Below, in pieces: positions 9,998 through 25,012 of a DNA stretch of 28,828 nucleotides. A program made the translations under genes and the position numbers. Below the pieces are notes generated by a model. It was not told where the DNA came from. It was given only the letters and a program-made list of their open reading frames with translations, and did not search any database. Location: positions 1 through 28,828 of IMG/VR virus record IMGVR_UViG_3300017963_000639. The stretch is one strand, 5' to 3'. Every line of letters begins with the position of its first letter. The first letter of the stretch is position 1. This DNA is from a virus.

Positions 9998-10843
9998 TCA
10001 TACTTCCCACCAATTGAATTCATCAAGACCGTATTTGCGGGATAGGTATTCTCTGGAAGCGGATTGAATATCTTGAACCCCAAACATATTCCGCCCCTCC
10101 AAATACAACGGGTTTTCTTCTTCCTTCGGTTTGACATGAAGGGCAATTGATTCCGGACGGGTTCCGACATTGAAAGCCCGGGAGAATCGCCAAAAGAAAT
10201 CAAAATGTTCCCCGCCAATCGGGCAAAGATTGTCCCAACGTATCATTTGAACCGCTTTGGTTTCCGCGGCAAAGAAGTTGGCCCCATAATCAACGCGGAA
10301 GATACCGGGCCCAAGTTCTTCATGAACTTCCAGGGGAAGACGGTCAAGGACCCCGTTGAACATTCGCAACAAGCCCCAAAAGTTTTCACCCAACCATTGT
10401 TGGGGACAGCAAAGTTGAAGGTCATGATTGACAACCGCTTGAAGAACCAAATCAAGACGGGTGTTTTCGGTGAAGACAACATCATGATCCGAGTAAACCA
10501 TATACGGGGTTTCGATCAAATCAAGACCGAAGTTCCGCCCAAAGTTGAATTCCGAATAAAGCCCCGCAGAATTGACATTGTGGAATTCCGATTCAAACGG
10601 GGGACAAATAAGTTGAACTTTTCCCGCGTCAATGAACGGTTTGATTTCCAGAAGAAGAAAATCCCGTTCTTTCCAATTTGCAACAACAATGATTTCCCCC
10701 CAATCATAATATTCCAACGCGGACACAACCAACCGCTTGCAAGCTTGGGGGCGGTTGAACGTCTTGACCAAAAGGGTTGTGTCTTGCAAGTTGCGGACCG
10801 GACCCTTGAACGTTGGCAACGCTTTTCCCGTCAATGGCTTCAT
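9998..10843 (-). CDS. Glycosyltransferase (GT-A fold), 281 aa
   Basis: The N-terminal TTLLVKTFNRPQACKRLVVS is the usual start of a GT-A sugar-nucleotide domain. A metal-binding DxD appears as YSDHDVVF (119-121), and CPIGGEHFDFFWRF (208-220) looks like the acceptor or catalytic loop of GT2/GT27-like enzymes. It probably moves a sugar from a nucleotide donor to a virion protein, phage DNA base or host glycan; which one cannot be seen. The ATG overlaps the upstream stop as ATGA at 10843-10840. It sits beside recombination genes rather than beside the other two sugar enzymes (18037-20747). Confidence 0.82.
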   Translation of the reverse strand: MKPLTGKALPTFKGPVRNLQDTTLLVKTFNRPQACKRLVVSALEYYDWGEIIVVANWKERDFLLLEIKPFIDAGKVQLICPPFESEFHNVNSAGLYSEFNFGRNFGLDLIETPYMVYSDHDVVFTENTRLDLVLQAVVNHDLQLCCPQQWLGENFWGLLRMFNGVLDRLPLEVHEELGPGIFRVDYGANFFAAETKAVQMIRWDNLCPIGGEHFDFFWRFSRAFNVGTRPESIALHVKPKEEENPLYLEGRNMFGVQDIQSASREYLSRKYGLDEFNWWEV

Positions 10844-14245: not shown

Positions 14246-14869
14246 ATGACAGACAAATTGACCGCAGCAAACAAAAGTGAATTGACCCGGGAACAATGGT
14301 TGACGGAAGTTGTCAACATGGCGGAACCGTTCTTCAACGAAGCGGATTTGAAGCTTCCCAAAAATTGGCGGGTGTCTTGCGGGTTTCCTTCATCCGGTCC
14401 GCGGAAAGCTATTGGGGAATGTCATTATGAGTTGAACTCAGAAGACGGGGTCCGGGAAATGTTCGTTTCCCCAACGCTTGGAACTTCGGTCAAGGCAATC
14501 AAAGTCCTTCTTCATGAAGTGATTCATTGTTGCCTTGGTCCGGGCAAAGGACACCGCAAAGAATTCTCCCAAGCGGGGAAGCGGTTGGGATTTGAAGGGA
14601 AGCCAACCCAAATGGAACCCGCGGATGAAGATTGGGAACCGTTCTTCAACTTGGTTGTTGAAACGCTTGGGGAATACCCCCATGGGAAGTTGAATCTTTC
14701 CGGACGGAAGAAACAATCAACGCGGATGATTAAAGTAGAATGTACCGATGAAGACTGCGGTTGCGTTCTGCGGATGTCCCGGAAGTGGATTGAAACGCTT
14801 CCGTCCCTTCCCATCTGCGGTTGCGGTTGTGACATGAAGGTTGACTTGATGGGGTTGTTGGGAAGTTAG
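14246..14869 (+). CDS. SprT-like zinc metalloprotease, 207 aa
   Basis: HEVIH (90-94) followed by H103 (KGHRKEF) is the gluzincin-like zinc site of the SprT/Spartan family, preceded by the usual hydrophobic helix (AIKVLL). The C-terminus carries a zinc-ribbon-like Cys cluster (C165, C171, C173, C191, C193, C195), as in SprT proteins. Spartan enzymes cleave proteins cross-linked to DNA; phage members are widespread and their substrate is unknown. AAAGGGAATAGAT precedes the ATG at 14246. An intrinsic terminator follows and a helicase gene comes next, consistent with a DNA-maintenance role. Confidence 0.85.
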   Translation: MTDKLTAANKSELTREQWLTEVVNMAEPFFNEADLKLPKNWRVSCGFPSSGPRKAIGECHYELNSEDGVREMFVSPTLGTSVKAIKVLLHEVIHCCLGPGKGHRKEFSQAGKRLGFEGKPTQMEPADEDWEPFFNLVVETLGEYPHGKLNLSGRKKQSTRMIKVECTDEDCGCVLRMSRKWIETLPSLPICGCGCDMKVDLMGLLGS

Positions 14870-14884
14870 TTCTAAACATTCAAC

Positions 14885-14912
14885 GGGCCCCCGGGAAACC
14901 GGGGGTCCTTTT
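14885..14912 (+). terminator. Intrinsic terminator with GAAA tetraloop
   Basis: GGGCCCCCGG pairs with CCGGGGGTCC (one G-T) around the loop GAAA, then TTTT. The helicase ribosome site follows directly (CTGGAAGG). Confidence 0.85.
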
Positions 14913-14928
14913 CTGGAAGGAAGAAGAC

Positions 14929-16644
14929 ATGAAGAAGATTGACTTTGGGAAAGCGTTGGATAAAGCCCGGAAGAATGCCCGGACGGACGGAAAGAAAACC
15001 GCCCCCAAACCGGTCCGGAAGAAGACGCGGAAGCAACCGCGGAAAGTCAAGGACGGGAAACCTTCCCACATTGCCGTTGACGCGTTGGCGGGGACGGGAA
15101 AGACTTTCACGTTGGTTGTTGGGGTTGCTGCCCTTTTTGCTTCCGCAACCTTTGGACGGTCTTGGAAAACGGTTGTGAAGAAACTTGGGTTTGATCCCAA
15201 GCCAACCGCCCAACAATCCGGGGTTTGGAAAGCGTTGAAATCCGGTCCGCTGCCCCGGACAATTACTTACCTTGCTTACAACCGGACGATTGTTGACGAT
15301 TTTGGGGCGGAATGGAAATGCCTTGTTGATGTCTTGAAAAAGGACAACATCTTTTTCAATTTCCGGACTTGTCATTCTTTGGGATTTGGGGCTTGTTGCA
15401 AAGCTTACGGGTTGAAGCTTGAAAACGTCAACCAATTCAAGACCCAAGACTTGCTTGAACGGGAATTGGGTCAAGACTTGCGGGTTTATTCGGAAGAAGT
15501 TGACGGGGGTTCAACAATCGTTTCCGCGGTTGTCAAACTTGTTTCCCAATGTAAGTTGAACTTGGTCAACCTTTGGGAAAAGGATAAAGACGGGAAGTGG
15601 GAAGCGTTGGCAAACCTTGCAACCCATTTTGAGATTGACTTAGAAACGGAAGACGGGTTTGATTTGCGGGATGAAGTCTTCCGTCTTGTTCCGGTCATCC
15701 TTGACCAATCCAGGAAGGAAACCGGGACGATTGACTTTGATGACCAAGTTTGGTTGCCCAATGTCAACAATCTTCCGGTTGCGGTTTGTGATTTGCTGTT
15801 GGGGGATGAAGCCCAAGATTGGAACAAAGCCCAACAAGCATTGTTGACAAAAGCGGGAAGACGGATTGTCATGGTTGGGGATGTCAACCAAGCAATATAC
15901 GGTTTTGCGGGGGCGGATGTTGAATCCATTCCGAGAATGAAGACGGAACTTCAAGCTTCCCGCAAGTTGGAAACCTTCCCCTTGACGCAAACCCGCAGAT
16001 GTTCCAAAGCGGTTGTCCGGGATTGCCAACAATTGGTTCCGGAGTTTGAAGCGTTCCCGGAAAACCCGGAAGGGTCCGTTGAAGCCATGTCCGAAGAAGA
16101 CATGATGAAACGGGTTGCGGAAGGGGACTTGATTCTTTGCCGAACAACCGCCCCCTTGGTTGGCTATGTTACAAAGCTTGTCAAAGCGGGAATCAAAGCC
16201 AACATCAACGGACGGAACTTTGGTGAAGGACTGATTTCCTTGATTGACCGTTTGAAAGCCAAGACCCTTGAAGACTTGGTCTTCGGTCTGGACAATTGGC
16301 TTGCCAAAGAAACCGCCAAAGTGAATGCCCGGAAACATCCGAGCGAAGACGCGTTGATTGCTTTGACGGACAAGCGGGATTGTGTCCTTGCCTTTACGGA
16401 AGGGGCGGACAGCGTCAAGGATGTCAAAGACAACATCAACAAGTTGTTTTCCAATGACCGGGAAGGGGTCTTGGCTTCCACTATTCATAGAGCAAAGGGA
16501 ATGGAGTCAACCAACGTCTTCCTTTGTCATCCGGAACTTCTGCCCCACCCCATGGCAAAGACCCCTTGGGCAATCGGGCAGGAAAGAAACCTTGATTTTG
16601 TGGCACGTTCCCGGGCAAAATTGAACTTGTTCCGGGTTGAATAA
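14929..16644 (+). CDS. UvrD/Rep-like superfamily 1 helicase, 571 aa
   Basis: ATP-driven 3'-5' type DNA helicase. Motif I ALAGTGKT (52-59), motif Ia-like ITYLAYNRTIVDDF, motif II GDEAQD (292-297), motif III MVGDVNQAIYGFAGAD (about 315-330), motif IV LTQTRRCS, motif V STIHRAKGMES, motif VI NLDFVARSRAK. The length is at the short end for SF1A. Residues 1-45 form a basic tail containing APKPVRKKTRKQPRK, the tag shared with other replication proteins. AAGG and CTGGAAGG precede the ATG. It is flanked on both sides by terminators of the same design, so it may be expressed alone or by read-through. Confidence 0.92.
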   Translation: MKKIDFGKALDKARKNARTDGKKTAPKPVRKKTRKQPRKVKDGKPSHIAVDALAGTGKTFTLVVGVAALFASATFGRSWKTVVKKLGFDPKPTAQQSGVWKALKSGPLPRTITYLAYNRTIVDDFGAEWKCLVDVLKKDNIFFNFRTCHSLGFGACCKAYGLKLENVNQFKTQDLLERELGQDLRVYSEEVDGGSTIVSAVVKLVSQCKLNLVNLWEKDKDGKWEALANLATHFEIDLETEDGFDLRDEVFRLVPVILDQSRKETGTIDFDDQVWLPNVNNLPVAVCDLLLGDEAQDWNKAQQALLTKAGRRIVMVGDVNQAIYGFAGADVESIPRMKTELQASRKLETFPLTQTRRCSKAVVRDCQQLVPEFEAFPENPEGSVEAMSEEDMMKRVAEGDLILCRTTAPLVGYVTKLVKAGIKANINGRNFGEGLISLIDRLKAKTLEDLVFGLDNWLAKETAKVNARKHPSEDALIALTDKRDCVLAFTEGADSVKDVKDNINKLFSNDREGVLASTIHRAKGMESTNVFLCHPELLPHPMAKTPWAIGQERNLDFVARSRAKLNLFRVE

Positions 16645-17680: not shown

Positions 17681-18040
17681 TCAAGCTTCGTCTTGATTCA
17701 AAGCTTCCCCAAGCGTCTTGTTCCGTTGTTTGTCCAATTCTTCCTTCAACAGCTTGACGCAAGTTTCAAAGTCATTGGTTGGGAAGTCTTGAACGTTCCA
17801 TTGAAGATTGACTTGGGTTCCGTTGGGGGAGAATAAAGCGATGACCCAAGACCCGGCAACCGCCAACGGTTCCAACATCGGAAGAAGCAAAGCTTGAAGT
17901 TCCATCAAATCCGCTTCATCAACCCCTATCTTGGAAACGTGGGGTTTATTGGCGGAACGGTTCTTCCCCTTCCGGATCGGTCTTGGGGCGGAAACTTTTC
18001 CCCTTGGCTTCTTCTTCCGGATCGGTTTGGGATTCTTCAT
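17681..18040 (-). CDS. Basic-tagged hypothetical protein, 119 aa
   Basis: Not recognised. It opens with two copies of the basic tag (NPKPIRKKKP, then APRPIRKGK), followed by SANKPHVSK, which is the in-frame translation of an AATAAACCCC element. The rest is an amphipathic helical and beta domain (LQALLLPMLEPLAVAGSWVI, FSPNGTQVNLQWNVQDFP). The ATG at 18040 overlaps the upstream TGA (ATGA) and has a GGGGG-rich site before it. An internal ATG at 17905 would start after the element, but its ribosome site is poorly spaced. It ends a leftward operon of sugar enzymes. Confidence 0.62.
   Translation of the reverse strand: MKNPKPIRKKKPRGKVSAPRPIRKGKNRSANKPHVSKIGVDEADLMELQALLLPMLEPLAVAGSWVIALFSPNGTQVNLQWNVQDFPTNDFETCVKLLKEELDKQRNKTLGEALNQDEA
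17931..17962 (-). repeat. AATAAACCCC element, copy 9, inside the 119-aa gene
   Basis: The minus strand reads TTCCGCCAATAAACCCCACG, then TTTCCAAGATAGGGG. It is translated as SANKPHVSKIG within the frame starting at 18040. Confidence 0.7.
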
Positions 18041-19401
18041 CTTTTGGCCCCCCGCTTGAACGTCAAGGGTCCGGACGGAATCCGGATGAACCAAGACAAC
18101 CCTTTCCCAACTTCCACTTCCAACCCGTTCAAGCTTGCGAATTCATCAACCGCTTGTTTGACTCCAAACGCTGCCCCTTCCCGGGGCCCGTTATAATCAT
18201 GACCGGACAACCAACCCCCGGGTTTGATTTTCTTTGCCCAATGCAAATCTTCCCGGACTTGGGAATAACTATGAATCCCGTCAATGAAAACCAAGTCAAC
18301 ACTTTGGTCCGGAATTTGTTTCCGGGCTTGTTCGGATGTCTTCCGGATTAGTTGAACCCGGTCATCAAATGGGGCAAGCAACTTCCGGGTCAAGTTGAAA
18401 GCCCCGGCAAATTGACCGCAACCAATCTTTGACTTTTTGTCTTTGCTTAACTTGTATTCTTTGGAAGTCTTCCAGGGGTCAACACCAACGTATGTCAACC
18501 CTTTGTGTCGATGGAGAAGACACCGCGGGTTTGCACCTTGCCAAACCCCAACTTCCAACATCTTTGGAGCCCGTTCCCTTTCCAGACGGTTCAAGATTTC
18601 AACGGAGTATTTGCGGACAGAAGGAAACATCCCAAAGGACTTTTGAAGAAGGAAGGAAGCAAAGGAAGACCCGGTAAGGATTGCTTCCCGTCTTTCTTCC
18701 TTGAAGAAGTCCGGAATGATGTTGGTCAAATGCCAACAACAAGCGTTGGGATTGAAGCGTCTTGTTTCATGTTGCCAAGCGGGGGACGATTTCAAAAAGA
18801 CTTTCCGGGCCCGGTTCCAAGGGACGGGATTGTATCTCCATTGTTGAAGACGTTTGATTCTGAATTTGTCTTCCTTGGAAAGTTGAGAAAGCAACCCAAC
18901 CGAAGTTGCCCCATATGGGATTTTCTCCCCTTTGGAAATCTTCACAATCATTTCCCGGCAACGCTTCAACGCTTCCGCCATGAAGGGACTTTTTGGGGTT
19001 GCCCCAAACGGACAAGCAACCAACCCCAACGGACCGGAAGCCCAACCGGAACCGCGTTCCAAAGCTTTATGGTGAATCCCAACAAAATCATTTTCTTCCA
19101 TGGCATTCCAGAAGACGGAATCAAGGGGTCCGGTTGCGATAAAATCCGAATCAAACCAAACGCCCCCCTTTTCATGGATAAGCCAACAGCGTATTAAATC
19201 GGAACGTTGGGCAACCGGAACCCCGGAAGCAATGTCAAGGATTTCTTCCCCTCCCATTTCCTTGATGTCTTCCGGACCAATCAAACGGAAGGTGTTGTTG
19301 TTATGGTCAACCGATTCAAAACAAAGCTGTTGAAAATCGGAAACGGTTGCCCCCGGTTTGGTTTCCCAATAAGACCAAATATTCATCCCATATTCTCCCA
19401 T
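18037..19401 (-). CDS. Bifunctional GT32-like glycosyltransferase and SAM methyltransferase, 454 aa
   Basis: Two enzymes in one chain. Residues 1-240: a 'DXD sugar' glycosyltransferase (GT32-like), with RSDLIRCWLIHEKGGVWFDS leading to the DSD metal site (84-86). Residues 260-454: a class I methyltransferase of the Methyltransf_24 type, with MLEVGVWQGA (281-290) as motif I, YVGVDPW, VDLVFIDGIHSY (368-379) and PGGWLSGHDY. It could add a sugar and methylate it or a neighbouring sugar. AGGGGACACC precedes the ATG at 19401; an ATG at 19386 is also possible. It lies 8 bases after the GT25-sulfotransferase gene, so they form an operon. Confidence 0.85.
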   Translation of the reverse strand: MGEYGMNIWSYWETKPGATVSDFQQLCFESVDHNNNTFRLIGPEDIKEMGGEEILDIASGVPVAQRSDLIRCWLIHEKGGVWFDSDFIATGPLDSVFWNAMEENDFVGIHHKALERGSGWASGPLGLVACPFGATPKSPFMAEALKRCREMIVKISKGEKIPYGATSVGLLSQLSKEDKFRIKRLQQWRYNPVPWNRARKVFLKSSPAWQHETRRFNPNACCWHLTNIIPDFFKEERREAILTGSSFASFLLQKSFGMFPSVRKYSVEILNRLERERAPKMLEVGVWQGANPRCLLHRHKGLTYVGVDPWKTSKEYKLSKDKKSKIGCGQFAGAFNLTRKLLAPFDDRVQLIRKTSEQARKQIPDQSVDLVFIDGIHSYSQVREDLHWAKKIKPGGWLSGHDYNGPREGAAFGVKQAVDEFASLNGLEVEVGKGLSWFIRIPSGPLTFKRGAKR

Positions 19402-19409
19402 GGTGTCCC

Positions 19410-20747
19410 CTAAAGTCTTGGCTTGGAAGGTTTGACAGATTCGGACGCTTTCTTCACTTGTTCAGATGTTGGTTGAATCCGTAGAAACTTTTTGATTCTA
19501 GTGATTTCAACCCGCGGGTGTTTCAACAATCGTTCAAACTTGACCGTCAAAACTTGCTTTTCTGGAAGGGATTGAATCAACTCCCGCTTCCCCGCCAATA
19601 GCCAACGTTGGTGTCTTTCAACCGCTGCGGGTGGGATGTCCTTCCGGACAATATCCCAACGCGTTGACATTGACTTGATTGACTTTTTGACGGGTCTTTG
19701 AATGTCGATGACCCGCAGCGTTTCCCCGCAAATGTTTTTCAATTGGTTTCCCATTTGGCATAGTTGCGGGTATTTCAACGCGGGGATTGTCTGTTTGAAA
19801 TGGGCTTCCCGCTTCTTCTCATTGATGAACGCTTTCAACTTGCCCCAAAGCTGTCCCTTTTTGATTTTCAATTCAACCGCGGGGAACGGAATAGCTTCTT
19901 CGCAAATCTTCATCAACTGGATTGCTTCAAACCCGCAAGCTTTTTCCGGGTCCGTTCCATAGTATCCCGCAAGTTCATTGCCCAAGTGAAGCCCAAGATG
20001 ATATAGGACCCCCGCCAACGCGGAAGACCCGGATGAATGAAGACCCAAGACCGCAACAAACGGGACTTCATCCGGTTTGAATTCCGCAAGTTGTTCCGCG
20101 GGGGCCCAATAGCGGTTTGGAAATTGCTTGTCTGTAATATCGGAATCCCCTTCCGATTGTCCAACAATCCATTCCCAAGGACAATAAATTCTGCGGTCCC
20201 GTCTTTGATGGAGTCTTCCTAAGTGGTGGTCAATGTGTTGACGGTCAACCCAATCTTTCCGCGTCAAGTGTTTATAGACAACCTTCAACATTTCCCCCCG
20301 CAACCCAAAACAATGGGTCCGGTTTATATTGTACGGTTGGAAGACTGCCCGATTGATTTTCTTTGGCGGGTGTTTATCAACCCAAAGATGTTGTCCGCCA
20401 AGATAGATCATTTCCCAATCTTCCGGAAGATATTTGAAGAAGCGTTCCGTCTTGGTCCGGAAGTCCGCGGGAAAAATTGCGTCATCCTCAAAAATCAAAA
20501 GGGACTTTGTCCCGTTGGCAATTGCCCGTTCCAAGATTTTCAAATGGGAACGATAACAACCCCAAGCCCCGGGCCCGGACTTCCACCAATGAGGATGGGG
20601 AACAACTTGTCCGTCAACCGCGGGAACGCGTTTGATAGATCGGAACGGGAAGTCTTCCGGGACCCCATCAAGGAAGCGTTCCCAACGGTCCGGTCTTCTG
20701 GAAAGATTGACGCAAACAACCTTTTGAAAAGTGTCTTTCAAGTTCAT
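19410..20747 (-). CDS. Bifunctional GT25 glycosyltransferase and sulfotransferase-like protein, 445 aa
   Basis: Residues 1-210 match glycosyltransferase family 25: VVCVNLSRRPDRWERFL (10-26), GAWGCYRSHLKILERA, IFEDDAIF with the EDD metal site (87-89), and QHIDHHLG. Residues 229-445 look like a P-loop sulfotransferase: VAVLGLHSSGSSALAGVLYH (231-250) resembles the 5'-phosphosulfate loop of PAPS-dependent enzymes, and VKFERLLKHP near the end resembles the conserved 'YE-L--dP' helix. The product could be a sulfated glycan. I chose the ATG at 20747 (CAGGGGACACCG before it); the open frame to 20942 runs through an element and the upstream gene's end and is probably not coding. Confidence 0.84.
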   Translation of the reverse strand: MNLKDTFQKVVCVNLSRRPDRWERFLDGVPEDFPFRSIKRVPAVDGQVVPHPHWWKSGPGAWGCYRSHLKILERAIANGTKSLLIFEDDAIFPADFRTKTERFFKYLPEDWEMIYLGGQHLWVDKHPPKKINRAVFQPYNINRTHCFGLRGEMLKVVYKHLTRKDWVDRQHIDHHLGRLHQRRDRRIYCPWEWIVGQSEGDSDITDKQFPNRYWAPAEQLAEFKPDEVPFVAVLGLHSSGSSALAGVLYHLGLHLGNELAGYYGTDPEKACGFEAIQLMKICEEAIPFPAVELKIKKGQLWGKLKAFINEKKREAHFKQTIPALKYPQLCQMGNQLKNICGETLRVIDIQRPVKKSIKSMSTRWDIVRKDIPPAAVERHQRWLLAGKRELIQSLPEKQVLTVKFERLLKHPRVEITRIKKFLRIQPTSEQVKKASESVKPSKPRL

Positions 20748-20774: not shown

Positions 20775-20806
20775 TTTGAAAACGTGGGGTTTATTGGCGG
20801 ATTCAA
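20775..20806 (-). repeat. AATAAACCCC element, copy 10
   Basis: The minus strand reads TTGAATCCGCCAATAAACCC, then CACGTTTTCAAACTAGGG. Its first bases hold the TGA stop of the 277-aa gene; it is followed by the leader of the GT25-sulfotransferase gene. Confidence 0.8.
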
Positions 20807-21636
20807 GTTGACCCCATGAATCCGGACCCCGCCCCATTTGCCAAGTGTATTGGGCCCCCTTGGGCAACGAGTATTGAACCGGAAGCGGAACCGGACCCGG
20901 ACCCGGACCCCGGGCAGCAATCACCCAAGTCAAGTTCAACATCCGTTCCCGCTTTCTTCCCGCAAAGTTTCCCGTTCCGGAAAGTCAATGTTTCAACGGT
21001 CAAAGTGATTGTTGGTTTTGAAAAGCTTCCCCCGGTAACAACATCAACGTCCCCGGTATAATTACAACCGGAAGTTGAAACCGATCCGGAAGCGGATATT
21101 GAAGACCCTCCCGAAGCGGAAGCGGAAACGGAACCGGAACCGGATTGGGAAGTTGAACAAGGGACGGAACAATCCGAAACAATGAATAAGTCCCCCCAGA
21201 CATCGGACACCGCAAACAACAGCGGTTCCCCAATTTCATCCCCGGACCCCGGACCACAAGACGGACCCGCGGTTGGTTGAATAGCTTCCCCGCAAAGATT
21301 GAAAACCCGGGCTTTGACTTGGGCCCCATCGTCATCCAAACGGGGAATCAACTTTGAAGACTTGACCGGGTTTTCAATTCTCCGGGCAACGTCTTCTTCT
21401 TCATTCTTTTCCCGTTGGTATATCTTGCAAATTCCGGACCCAAGGAAAAGACGGTTTCCAACACGTTTGGCCCCGGGGATGACCGCTTCCGGAACAACAG
21501 CATAAGCCCGGAGATAATTGAAACCGCGTTCCGGGAAACCAATGGAAGTTCCCCGGACCGGGTGGGAACGTCTTTCCCGGGCAAGTTGCTTGGCAAACAA
21601 CGCGTCCGTCTTATCATTGAAACCGTATATGGTCAT
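20803..21636 (-). CDS. Ser/Gly-rich probable virion protein, 277 aa
   Basis: Not assigned to a family. A globular N-terminal part (residues 1-155) is followed by a low-complexity linker SGSGSVSASASGGSSISASG (165-184), a beta-rich segment with several Cys (DCSVPC, GCNY, LCGKK, DCCPG), a second linker GSGSGSGSASGS, and a short Gly/Ala tail. Such Ser/Gly linkers join domains in tail or fibre proteins. Position after the tape measure and one other virion-type gene, and before the sugar-modifying enzymes, fits a tail or adhesin component, possibly their substrate. Start ATG at 21636 lies 8 bases after the upstream stop, with only a weak GAGAA site. Confidence 0.65.
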   Translation of the reverse strand: MTIYGFNDKTDALFAKQLARERRSHPVRGTSIGFPERGFNYLRAYAVVPEAVIPGAKRVGNRLFLGSGICKIYQREKNEEEDVARRIENPVKSSKLIPRLDDDGAQVKARVFNLCGEAIQPTAGPSCGPGSGDEIGEPLLFAVSDVWGDLFIVSDCSVPCSTSQSGSGSVSASASGGSSISASGSVSTSGCNYTGDVDVVTGGSFSKPTITLTVETLTFRNGKLCGKKAGTDVELDLGDCCPGSGSGSGSASGSILVAQGGPIHLANGAGSGFMGST

Positions 21637-21646
21637 GGGTTCATTC

Positions 21647-22552
21647 TCAGAAGGGGCCCAAGTTCAAATCATTGAAGTCCGCCCAAGGATAACGGTTGAA
21701 TTCTTTGAATTGCGGGTCTTCTCCGGTGTCCAGTTTCTTCCCGGTTCCGTTTTCAAGGAAGACTTGAGCGGGGTTTCCGTCCTTGTCCTCATATATCGCA
21801 ATTTTTCCGTCATCATTTTTATACTTGTACCCAACGTGAAGGACCCGGGCTTTCCAAGTTTGAACTTGAATTCCTTCAACGGGGAACTTGCGAATTTTGA
21901 ACTTCATCCGGTACGTCACTTGGACATATTTAATCCCTTCAATGCTTTCCTCTTGGGCTTCCGGGGGCATCATCAAAACGGTTCCCAAGGGAGCCCCATA
22001 GAACGTTGATGAGTTAACATGATTTCCATAATCAATAATAATGTTGGGGTCAAAGGGGTAGAATTCATACCGTTTGACTTCCAAAACCGCAATGACATTT
22101 TGAGTTGTCACAATCAACGGTTCTTCCGCGTCTGTCCGGATCGGTTCTTCTGTAATCAAATCCTTTTCAAGTGTTTCTTCTTCACTTTCCCCATACCAAC
22201 GGATTTGTGGGGTCTTGGCTTCCGGGGGTTGGTTTTGGTCTTCGGAAGCGTCAACATTGGAATCAAAGGAACAAGGGACTTCCCATATGATGGAGTTGAC
22301 CCCGGTGACCGGATGAATGATTCGGGAAACTTCCTTGGGATTTTGGGAAACACAAAACGCCCCTTGAAGGGAAGAAAACAAAGGGGGAATTCCCGTTGTT
22401 GCAACAATATCTTCTTCCGTATCGTCTTGGGTGTCTGCCAAAACAAGATAGGTCCGTTTGAACCGTTTCCGATTGGCCCAACTTTTGTCTTGTTGTTCAA
22501 GGGCAAGCGTCCCCCCGGAAGTTGCGTTCTTCAATCCTAAAACTTTGGGCAT
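21647..22552 (-). CDS. Probable tail-associated structural protein, 301 aa
   Basis: Not assigned to a family. A beta-rich protein with GIPPLFSSLQGAF, then IIHPVTGVNSIIWEVPCSFD (about residues 78-97), an acidic loop (EDQNQPPEAKTP), and a C-terminal region KYVQVTYRMKFKIRKF ending in FNDLNLGPF. It starts 3 bases after the tape-measure stop, which places it where distal-tail or baseplate proteins usually lie. The ribosome site is weak (GGGAG), and a GTGTAAACA motif overlaps the junction. Structural role is inferred from position and composition. Confidence 0.65.
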   Translation of the reverse strand: MPKVLGLKNATSGGTLALEQQDKSWANRKRFKRTYLVLADTQDDTEEDIVATTGIPPLFSSLQGAFCVSQNPKEVSRIIHPVTGVNSIIWEVPCSFDSNVDASEDQNQPPEAKTPQIRWYGESEEETLEKDLITEEPIRTDAEEPLIVTTQNVIAVLEVKRYEFYPFDPNIIIDYGNHVNSSTFYGAPLGTVLMMPPEAQEESIEGIKYVQVTYRMKFKIRKFPVEGIQVQTWKARVLHVGYKYKNDDGKIAIYEDKDGNPAQVFLENGTGKKLDTGEDPQFKEFNRYPWADFNDLNLGPF

Positions 22553-22561
22553 TGTTTACAC
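22553..22561. promoter_or_regulatory. GTGTAAACA motif, copy 4
   Basis: On the minus strand GTGTAAACA spans the tape-measure stop codon (GTG TAA) and touches the next ATG. Confidence 0.3.
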
Positions 22562-25012
22562 TCCCGCAACCGGTTCCGAATAGTCAACAATCAATTCATT
22601 TTGAGTTTCAAGCAACTCATTAGTTTTTTGGGCTTCCTTCAATTGCTTCTGTTGGGTTCCGTCCCGGAATTGAAGTTCAAGGATTTTTTGGGCAGCGGCA
22701 ACGGTTCCTTCTTCCAACGCTTTTGTTGGGGAAACCTTTGCCCCGGGAAGACCCGCCAACGCTGCCCCCGCCCCTCCCGCTTGGGCTTCCGTTTGTTTGG
22801 ATGTCATTTCTTCCGCTATCCTGACGGATTCGGCATATTCATCCAATGCTTCTGCCCCTTCAACTTGTTGTTTTCGGGTTCTGATTTCCTCCAACATTCG
22901 GTTCAAGTTTTCCTTTTCCCTTTTGATTTCATCGTCCCGAAGTTTATTCGATTTCCCAACGCGGTCATTCCATTTGGCAAGATTCTTCCCCGTTTGGACA
23001 GCGGCATTGTCAATCTTGTCATCGAACGTACCCCCAACGCTGCCCATTGCTTCATCAAAACCGTCATTGTAATTTTTCAAGCTGTTTTTCAGATCGGCAA
23101 TTTGTGCGTCAAGTTCCTGAATTGCTGGAAGCGGAACGGGTCTTCCCGCTTCCTTCTGCCCCATCAAGGATTGTCTTTCCGCTTGCAACATTTTCAAGCG
23201 GTCCCGAAGAATCTTCATCCGCTGTTGTTCCAATTGGGCGGACTTTGCTTTGGTTTCGGAAACATCCGTCCCCGCTATAACGTCAAAGACTTCCCCAAGG
23301 ACCCCCGCGTTTTCGGCAAGACTCAAAATCCCCTTGGCAATAGTTTTCTGGAGGGAAAACCAAGTTTGAAGGACTGCCATTTTGGCCCCTTCCCAAGCTT
23401 CAATGAAGAAGGTTGCAAATCCTTCCCAAGCTTCCGCCAATGTGTCAACAACTTGAAGCCAAGTAATTGTCAAACCTTGACCCAAGATTTCCCATGCGGC
23501 TTGAAGGTCACCCATTGCGATTGCATCGACGATACCGGAAAAGGTGTCCTTGATTGTCTGTCCAATCTGCCCAAACTTTTCCGCAAAGAATGAAGCAACT
23601 TGGGTCATGACGGACCGGGCAGAAGAAGAAAAGGTGAATAATGCTGCCCCAACCGCAACAATTGCGGCAATGACCAACCCCGGGGGTGAAATCAAAGCCA
23701 ACATCAACACCTTCACAACCGTCAACACGGTTGCCAATGCCCCCGCGGCAACGGCAACAAGTTTGATTCCAATAGCAAGGGCAATAAGACCCGCCCCGAA
23801 ACCGCCAACCGCAGCAACCAAAGAAACCAAAAGGATAATCAAACCCTTGTTGGCTCCCATCCATTCCGACAATCCGCCAAGGAAAATCAACAAGCGGTCC
23901 GCAATACGGGCAAGGGGCTTTTCCAAAGCTTCCCCAAGGGCAATCATGACACCTTCCCCCGCGGATATAAGCTTCCGGAAACTTCCGCCAAGTCCGCTGT
24001 CCATGATTTTAGCGGTCTTCTTTGCTTGCCCCGCAGCGTCTTTTTGAAGCTTGTTGAGAAGTTCAAAAGCGTCAATCGCTCCCCTTGCCGCCCCGGTTGC
24101 TTTTCCAAATTGGCGGACACCAAAAAGAATGGACAACAAGTCCCCGCGTTCCGCGGTTCCCAAATCCGCTGTCACTTCCCCAATTTCCTTCAACAAGTCA
24201 AGCGGAAGACGCAAATCCCCTTTTGCGTTTCTGAATTGAACCGCGGACTTTCCCAATGCTTGAAGACCCTTGTTGAACTTGCCGGTGAATTCCCCTTTGC
24301 TCATTCTGGCAAGGAAAGATTGAAGGGCAACCCCGGATTCCGAAGCGGTAATATTCAAGTTGGTCATTGAAGCCAACGTTGCAACCGTTTCTTCAAGCGT
24401 CAAACCGAAGTCCGAAGCAAGGGGCCCCGCTTTGGCCATTCCATCAAGCAACCCTTGAAGGGAAAAGTTGGAGTTGTTGACCGCGGTTGTGAAGACATCG
24501 GCAACCCGCCCCGCTTCAGAAGCTTCCATTTGATAAGCCCGAAGCGTTCCGGAAATCAAGTCCGCAGACATGACCGCGTCTTCTTCTCCACCTTCACCCG
24601 CTGCCCGGGCAAGGGCAAGGACATCGTCCGTCATTTCCTTGATTGCATTCCGCCCAAATCCTTTTTGGGCGAGCTTGGCTTGAAGGTCCCCAACTTGAAC
24701 CGCGGTGAAGGAAGTTGACCGTCCCAACTCTTGGGCTTGTTTGCGAAGTTCCGCCATTGATTGGGCGGTCCCGGATGACCGGGCTTCCACCTTCTTCATC
24801 GCATCATCAAAATCCGCAAAGCGTTTGACAGACAACCCAACCGGAACCAACGCGGCAAGGGACTTGGTCAACATGGATTGCCCCAACGCTTGCATCCGCA
24901 GGGCAAACGCTTTCATCTTGGCTTGAACCCTTCGCATAACCGCAGCGGTCCGGTCAACCGCTCCAATTACGATGAAAGCTTTTCCCGCTTTGATTCCACC
25001 TTTTGTTGCCAT
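22556..25012 (-). CDS. Tail tape measure protein, 818 aa
   Basis: Sets tail length and spans the tail tube. Residues 60-350 match the conserved tape-measure core (VKRFADFDDAMKKVEA, LRKQAQELGRSTSFTAVQVG, MAKAGPLASDFGLTLEETVA, ILFGVRQFGKATGA). Residues 390-461 are hydrophobic (LIILLVSLVAAVGGFGAGLI and on) and could insert in the host membrane at infection. The C-terminal third is helical and coiled (KILRDRLKMLQAERQSL, KREKENLNRMLEEIRTRKQQ). At about 3 bases per 1.5 angstrom of helix, 818 residues would predict a tail near 120 nm; this is an estimate. The ATG at 25012 has AAGG upstream. Confidence 0.95.
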   Translation of the reverse strand: MATKGGIKAGKAFIVIGAVDRTAAVMRRVQAKMKAFALRMQALGQSMLTKSLAALVPVGLSVKRFADFDDAMKKVEARSSGTAQSMAELRKQAQELGRSTSFTAVQVGDLQAKLAQKGFGRNAIKEMTDDVLALARAAGEGGEEDAVMSADLISGTLRAYQMEASEAGRVADVFTTAVNNSNFSLQGLLDGMAKAGPLASDFGLTLEETVATLASMTNLNITASESGVALQSFLARMSKGEFTGKFNKGLQALGKSAVQFRNAKGDLRLPLDLLKEIGEVTADLGTAERGDLLSILFGVRQFGKATGAARGAIDAFELLNKLQKDAAGQAKKTAKIMDSGLGGSFRKLISAGEGVMIALGEALEKPLARIADRLLIFLGGLSEWMGANKGLIILLVSLVAAVGGFGAGLIALAIGIKLVAVAAGALATVLTVVKVLMLALISPPGLVIAAIVAVGAALFTFSSSARSVMTQVASFFAEKFGQIGQTIKDTFSGIVDAIAMGDLQAAWEILGQGLTITWLQVVDTLAEAWEGFATFFIEAWEGAKMAVLQTWFSLQKTIAKGILSLAENAGVLGEVFDVIAGTDVSETKAKSAQLEQQRMKILRDRLKMLQAERQSLMGQKEAGRPVPLPAIQELDAQIADLKNSLKNYNDGFDEAMGSVGGTFDDKIDNAAVQTGKNLAKWNDRVGKSNKLRDDEIKREKENLNRMLEEIRTRKQQVEGAEALDEYAESVRIAEEMTSKQTEAQAGGAGAALAGLPGAKVSPTKALEEGTVAAAQKILELQFRDGTQQKQLKEAQKTNELLETQNELIVDYSEPVAGV

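What the first reader, a model, noticed from the sequence alone, without database searches (positions are those of the whole stretch)
19410..20747. GT25 glycosyltransferase fused to a sulfotransferase-like domain
One chain joins EDD-type GT25 motifs with GLHSSGSSALAG, a PAPS-loop-like motif. A phage enzyme that may build a sulfated sugar is unusual and could mask virions or alter host surface glycans.
Basis: partly seen in the sequence, partly recalled or inferred. Interest (0 to 1): 0.62.

Follow-up and report, generated by a model that had tools for sequence, protein, structure and literature searches.

The report
Two-domain sugar enzyme of phages
Phages of Planctomycetota bacteria carry an enzyme that joins a sugar-adding half to a sulfotransferase-like half, usually encoded next to a serine-rich tail-region protein that it probably decorates, though in this particular phage the sulfotransferase half has lost one key active-site residue.

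Summary
Window 19410-20747 encodes, on the minus strand, one 445-residue protein: a glycosyltransferase family 25 (GT25) domain (residues 1-215; PF01755 above cut-off) and a C-terminal sulfotransferase-fold domain (residues 228-445). An AlphaFold model (pLDDT 91.9) matches COLGALT1 (GT25) and PAP-bound tyrosylprotein sulfotransferases. The fusion is a conserved architecture: 58 non-redundant relatives in IMG/VR contigs and mostly Planctomycetota genomes.

Two corrections. First, the 'PAPS-loop' GLHSSGSS lacks the Arg (Lys/Arg defines sulfotransferases) present in 42 of 58 relatives; the window lies in a single clade with Ser/Ala there. The 3'-phosphate motif R351...S359, K325 and E274 remain. 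Sulfation is plausible for the Arg clade and doubtful for this member.

Second, the surroundings suggest the substrate. In 37 of 55 loci a protein with long serine tracts lies just upstream on the same strand; controls: 0 of 55 antisense, 1 of 25 GT25-only viral loci, 1 of 160 random Planctomycetota segments. The window's neighbour is a milder version, and a glycosyltransferase-methyltransferase fusion follows.

Best reading: a dedicated O-glycosylation module for a serine-rich virion protein, with sulfation as an additional step in most of the family.

The parts
19410..20747 (-). GT25-sulfotransferase-fold fusion, 445 aa, ATG at 20747, stop at 19410-19412
20103..20747 (-). GT25 domain, residues 1-215 (NLxRRxDR, EDD, NRTH, HIDHH)
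   Evidence: PF01755 E 6e-8 above cut-off; COLGALT1 by sequence and by fold E 3e-11
20481..20489 (-). EDD motif, residues 87-89, invariant in 25 of 25 aligned members
19413..20066 (-). sulfotransferase-fold domain, residues 228-445
20022..20045 (-). 5'-PSB-like loop GLHSSGSS, residues 235-242; residue 238 (20034-20036) is Ser, Arg in 42 of 58 relatives
19926..19928 (-). E274, invariant in 58 of 58; candidate catalytic base (inferred)
   Evidence: printed there as 277; that table's numbers run 3 too high; also present in the stand-alone Metabacillus relative by eye
19767..19775 (-). K325-Y326-P327; aligns with the K of KDP in TPST2
19671..19697 (-). 3'-phosphate-binding motif R351...S359, spacing 8
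20803..21636 (-). upstream neighbour, 277 aa: conserved N-terminal domain plus Ser/Gly/Ala-rich stretches (18 Ser in 50 residues); proposed acceptor
18037..19401 (-). downstream neighbour, 454 aa: DXD-type glycosyltransferase domain plus Methyltransf_24 domain
   Evidence: cluster found in 22 of 57 loci
21647..22552 (-). 301-aa protein of the tail operon, conserved with the module in the near clade
22556..25012 (-). tape measure protein
   Evidence: PHROG 28, E 6e-63

Best explanation
This is a soluble, late-expressed glycan-building enzyme of a tailed-phage group infecting Planctomycetota. The GT25 half transfers a sugar from a nucleotide-sugar donor through its EDD motif. The acceptor is most likely a serine-rich virion protein encoded directly upstream in the tail operon, either on its Ser residues or on a sugar already placed there. 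The sulfotransferase-fold half then acts on the same product: in most of the family (Arg clade) by PAPS-dependent sulfation of the glycan or protein. In the window's clade the loop Arg and a second acidic residue are replaced, so that half is probably slower, changed in chemistry, or serves to bind the acceptor. The neighbouring glycosyltransferase-methyltransferase fusion would add and methylate further sugars. Shown: domain identities, fusion conservation, residue changes, gene neighbourhood. Inferred: late expression, donor, acceptor, order of reactions, function on the virion.
For: GT25 assignment by profile, sequence and fold. Sulfotransferase fold by profile of relatives, by profile alignment to PAP-bound TPST2 with matching PRSGTT, KDP and R...S, and by fold search. 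Fusion and catalytic columns conserved across 58 non-redundant proteins. Gene order in the near clade is tape measure, 301-aa protein, Ser-rich protein, fusion, GT-methyltransferase. A Ser-rich ORF (at least 25 Ser in 50) lies within 3 kb upstream, same strand, in 37 of 55 loci; 0 of 55 antisense, 1 of 25 GT25-only viral loci (Fisher p 8e-8; after removing redundancy 1 of 15, p 5e-5), downstream 1 of 42, and 1 of 160 5-kb strand segments of five Planctomycetota genomes. All six Ser codons are mixed in the tracts, so selection is on the protein, not on a DNA repeat. Distribution is patchy in the phylum, 4 of 294 genomes, as expected of phage genes.
Against: The link to the Ser-rich protein is by gene neighbourhood only. 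The window's own neighbour is only moderately Ser-rich (18 in 50), and some loci (e.g. L013, L014, L073, L114, L164) have none within reach. The Ser-rich proteins have no PHROG match; that they are virion parts rests on position and on one weak match of an upstream protein to a virion structural family (L014). S238 removes the defining basic residue in this member. The acceptors of GT25 enzymes are diverse (LOS sugars, hydroxylysine), and direct Ser attachment by GT25 is not established by anything found here.
Confidence: 0.5

Rival explanations
1. The enzyme modifies host surface glycans (seroconversion or exclusion of other phages) rather than the virion.
For: Bacterial GT25 enzymes characteristically add sugars to lipooligosaccharide, and temperate phages carry such genes (Pfam name of PF01755; PMC12619734).
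Against: Position inside the tail operon, tight spacing (55 bp to the upstream gene, 8 bp to the downstream one), conserved coupling to a Ser-rich protein with controls negative. Exclusion genes usually lie outside late tail operons (general knowledge).
Confidence: 0.2
2. In the window clade the C-terminal domain is a pseudo-sulfotransferase that only binds the acceptor or the nucleotide, and the protein is a plain glycosyltransferase. This can be true together with the main model.
For: R238 replaced by Ser or Ala in 16 of 16 clade members, with one change on the tree; E263, invariant in the Arg clade, also replaced; tested clade members match Sulfotransfer_3 only in the C-terminal part or not at all.
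Against: E274, K325, R351 and S359 stay, the domain is about as constrained as the GT25 half, and new clade-specific conserved residues appeared, which suits changed rather than lost activity.
Confidence: 0.45
3. The enzyme takes part in DNA hypermodification (glycosylated bases).
For: Some prophage loci carry a downstream GT2 protein with a sub-threshold match to TET-associated glycosyltransferases and a radical-SAM gene; phage GTs are known to modify DNA (PMC12619734).
Against: The TAGT match is below cut-off and weaker than general GT2. No base-modification gene was noticed in the parts of the window scanned, and the gene is not in the replication module. GT25 and sulfotransferases have no DNA precedent known to me.
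Confidence: 0.05
4. The Ser-rich association is a by-product of Planctomycetota phage tail proteins being Ser-rich in general; the enzyme has an unrelated target.
For: Much of the association comes from a few phage lineages, so loci are not independent; GT25-only controls seem to come from other host groups (inferred from their base composition).
Against: It holds across lineages with distinct tail genes, and random Planctomycetota DNA has almost no such ORFs (1 of 160).
Confidence: 0.25

Closest known systems
COLGALT1 / GLT25D1 (procollagen galactosyltransferase, GT25; PDB 9evj, 8zgc)
   Same: GT25 domain by sequence and fold; EDD motif; a glycosyltransferase that acts on protein
   Different: The essential human DXD 461-463 aligns with D110-W-E112, whose second position is Gln in many relatives, and the RMQV stretch is absent; no second GT-A domain; fused to a sulfotransferase fold instead
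Tyrosylprotein sulfotransferase TPST2 (PDB 3ap1) and PF13469 Sulfotransfer_3
   Same: Fold, GxxRSGTT-type loop, Lys of KDP, 3'-phosphate R...S with spacing 8
   Different: Loop Arg is Ser in the window; the substrate is most probably a glycan or a Ser-rich chain, not known to be Tyr; fused to a glycosyltransferase
Serine-rich repeat glycoproteins of Gram-positive bacteria with dedicated glycosyltransferases (GspB, Fap1)
   Same: Ser-rich protein encoded beside glycosyltransferases; intracellular glycosylation before export (PMC5578698, PMC5207161; abstracts)
   Different: Phage tail operon, GT25 and sulfotransferase fold; GtfA/GtfB and accessory Sec were not looked for specifically; glycosylation here is inferred only
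Mycobacteriophage virion glycosylation (Freeman et al. 2023, cited in PMC12691614 and PMC12619734)
   Same: Glycans on phage virion proteins
   Different: Capsid and tail-tube C-termini in mycobacteriophages; no sulfotransferase domain or Ser tract mentioned in the passages read
Single-domain GT25 of cyanophages, Streptomyces phages, giant viruses
   Same: GT25 domain
   Different: Matches cover only the GT25 half; no sign of the fused sulfotransferase domain

Membership tests
Glycosyltransferase family 25 (PF01755) | Profile match above the curated cut-off | tested here: met
   33.2 bits against 24
Glycosyltransferase family 25 (PF01755) | EDD motif and GT-A-like fold | tested here: met
   EDD invariant in 25 of 25; fold match to COLGALT1 E 3e-11
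Glycosyltransferase family 25 (PF01755) | Sugar transfer activity | not testable with these tools
   needs an enzyme assay
PAPS-dependent sulfotransferase (PF13469/PF00685) | Fold of the superfamily | tested here: met
   AlphaFold model matches TPST, CurM, OLS sulfotransferases, E about 4e-6 to 1e-5
PAPS-dependent sulfotransferase (PF13469/PF00685) | Profile match above cut-off | tested here: not met
   window protein 20.5 bits against 27 and 21.8 against 22; close relative L001 and most Arg-clade members tested pass
PAPS-dependent sulfotransferase (PF13469/PF00685) | Lys/Arg in the 5'-phosphosulfate loop (PMC11625862) | tested here: not met
   Ser238 in the window; Arg in 42 of 58 relatives
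PAPS-dependent sulfotransferase (PF13469/PF00685) | 3'-phosphate motif R(x7)S | tested here: met
   R351...S359, near invariant, aligned to TPST2
PAPS-dependent sulfotransferase (PF13469/PF00685) | Catalytic base | tested here: inconclusive
   E274 invariant in 58 of 58, but its role is inferred
Serine-rich repeat glycoprotein system | Ser-rich protein encoded beside its glycosyltransferases | tested here: met
   37 of 55 loci; mild in the window itself (18 Ser in 50)
Serine-rich repeat glycoprotein system | GtfA/GtfB and accessory Sec genes | not tested
   neighbouring genes gave other families, but no targeted search for GtfA/GtfB or SecA2/SecY2 was run

The most novel reading that the evidence does not exclude
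Phages of Planctomycetota build sulfated (and methylated) O-glycans on long poly-serine brushes of a tail protein with a single fused GT25-sulfotransferase; this would be a prokaryotic virus counterpart of mucin-like sulfated glycoproteins, with one clade having reworked the sulfotransferase half.
Probability: 0.3. Interest if true: 0.78.

Novelty: new variant of a known kind. Interest (0 to 1): 0.58.

Why it matters
Virion glycosylation is known from few phages, and virion sulfation was not found in the papers searched. A widespread two-domain enzyme coupled to poly-serine proteins would give a defined enzyme-substrate pair to test both, in phages of a phylum whose viruses are little studied. 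It also gives a natural contrast of Arg-clade and Ser-clade enzymes to test which loop residue sulfotransferases really need.

Tried and rejected
A model from 4 sequences was poor (pLDDT 44); 25 sequences solved it. A C-terminal single-sequence scan found nothing, nor did the first genome scan with the full-length alignment. The idea that the fusion was a mis-called ORF or a frameshift join was rejected by the orthologues. The idea that Ser tracts were out-of-frame DNA repeats was rejected by codon mixing and conserved N-terminal domains. A common origin of the window's Ser-rich protein and the prophage ones could not be shown beyond a short VYNxC stretch; two other upstream families look related at their N-termini. 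A tape-measure scan for phages without the fusion as controls found only three relatives, all with it. NCBIfam gave nothing. Paper searches for phage sulfotransferase plus serine-rich found none.

Full report
What is there. The coordinates 19410-20747 are closed by stops when read in frame on the + strand. On the minus strand they hold one open frame of 445 residues, ATG at 20747. A longer mechanical ORF reaching 20942 overlaps the upstream gene. The gene starts 55 bases after the upstream gene and ends 8 bases before the downstream one, all on the minus strand.

First domain. Residues 60-125 match Glyco_transf_25 above its cut-off. The profile of 17 N-terminal domains finds COLGALT1 at E 2e-12 and Mimivirus R655 at 7e-7. 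EDD is invariant in 25 aligned relatives, as are NRTH and the H-D-H-H residues of HIDHH. In human GLT25D1 the DXD at 461-463 is essential (PMC3244457). Its counterpart here (D110-W-E112) is not kept as D/E at the second position in many relatives, so this is a GT25 of its own kind and not a collagen-type enzyme.

Second domain. In the window protein itself Sulfotransfer_1 and Sulfotransfer_3 fall below cut-off. Relatives with Arg in the loop mostly pass it, several over the full length, up to E 1e-15. The AlphaFold model from 25 sequences has mean pLDDT 91.9. Its fold search gives COLGALT1, and tyrosylprotein sulfotransferases with bound PAP, CurM and the OLS sulfotransferase. The profile of Arg-clade domains aligns to TPST2 so that HRSGSS meets PRSGTT, KYP meets KDP, and R351...S359 meets the R...S of the 3'-phosphate site (the loop part of this alignment is weak by itself).

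The catch. Among 58 non-redundant proteins of the family the loop residue is Arg in 42, Ser in 15, Ala in 1. The Ser/Ala proteins form one group on the tree with one change of the Arg label. The window is in it. A second acidic residue (E263 position, invariant in the Arg clade) is also replaced there, while E274, K325, R351 and S359 stay. A review of polysaccharide sulfotransferases makes the loop Lys/Arg one of the defining features (PMC11625862). So the window protein is a member of the sulfotransferase fold but fails one defining test for an active PAPS sulfotransferase. It may work differently, weakly, or not at all; the C-terminal half is nevertheless about as conserved as the GT25 half.

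Where it occurs. Scans of IMG/VR gave 67 loci for the whole protein (about half of them GT25 only) and 64 for the C-terminal domain; genomes gave 31, nearly all Planctomycetota, two from one Nevskiales bin and one stand-alone relative in Metabacillus. Only 4 of 294 Planctomycetota genomes carry it, as expected of prophage genes. Hits in cultured phages and giant viruses cover only the GT25 half.

Surroundings. In the near clade the order is tape measure, 301-aa protein, Ser-rich protein, fusion, and a protein that joins a DXD glycosyltransferase to a methyltransferase. In prophages of Pirellulaceae an upstream protein carries Ser tracts of hundreds of residues, followed by a small protein, the fusion, and one or two GT2 glycosyltransferases. 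Counting a stretch of at least 25 Ser in 50 residues within 5 kb upstream on the same strand: 37 of 55 loci, all within 3 kb, against 0 of 55 antisense and 1 of 25 GT25-only viral loci; downstream 1 of 42; random Planctomycetota DNA 1 of 160. The tracts use all six Ser codons. The window's neighbour is a mild case, 18 in 50. Loci are related by descent, so the Fisher p-values (8e-8; 5e-5 after removing redundant controls) overstate the evidence.

Interpretation. I read this as a virion-glycosylation module: the GT25 half, helped by neighbouring glycosyltransferases, decorates the Ser-rich tail-region protein, and the sulfotransferase half adds sulfate in the Arg clade. That the acceptor is the Ser-rich protein, that it is part of the virion, and that the product is sulfated are inferences. 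Rivals are host-surface modification, a pseudo-sulfotransferase in this clade (which can be true together with the main model), and DNA modification.

Novelty. Each domain is known. The fusion, its breadth, and its coupling to poly-serine proteins were not found described in the papers searched, which is a limited library. I file it as a new variant of a known kind.

Noticed in passing
window 18037-19401 (-): A second two-domain enzyme next door: DXD glycosyltransferase (Gly_transf_sug/Caps_synth) joined to Methyltransf_24; its cluster occurs in 22 of 57 loci.
   Followed up: partly
window 9998-10843 (-): 281-aa protein with a weak GT2 match that clusters with the GT2 glycosyltransferases following the fusion in Planctomycetota prophages.
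   Followed up: partly
window 14246-16644 (+): UvrD-like helicase and SprT-like protein on the opposite strand.
   Followed up: no
L075:4386-5633: In Planctomycetales ZRK34 the sulfotransferase domain follows about 200 residues of another tail-region protein instead of GT25; perhaps a deletion scar.
   Followed up: partly
L078:1158-3737: 859-aa prophage protein with 320 serines; many relatives, no PHROG family.
   Followed up: partly
L037:8689-10503: Ser-rich ORF (49 of 50 in one stretch) lies downstream of the fusion rather than upstream in this locus.
   Followed up: no
L078:8526-9374: Radical-SAM protein conserved downstream of the GT2 genes in the prophage operons.
   Followed up: no
L138:1097-2806: TPSITPSISV repeats upstream of the fusion, a Thr/Pro/Ser variant of the Ser-rich neighbour.
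   Followed up: no
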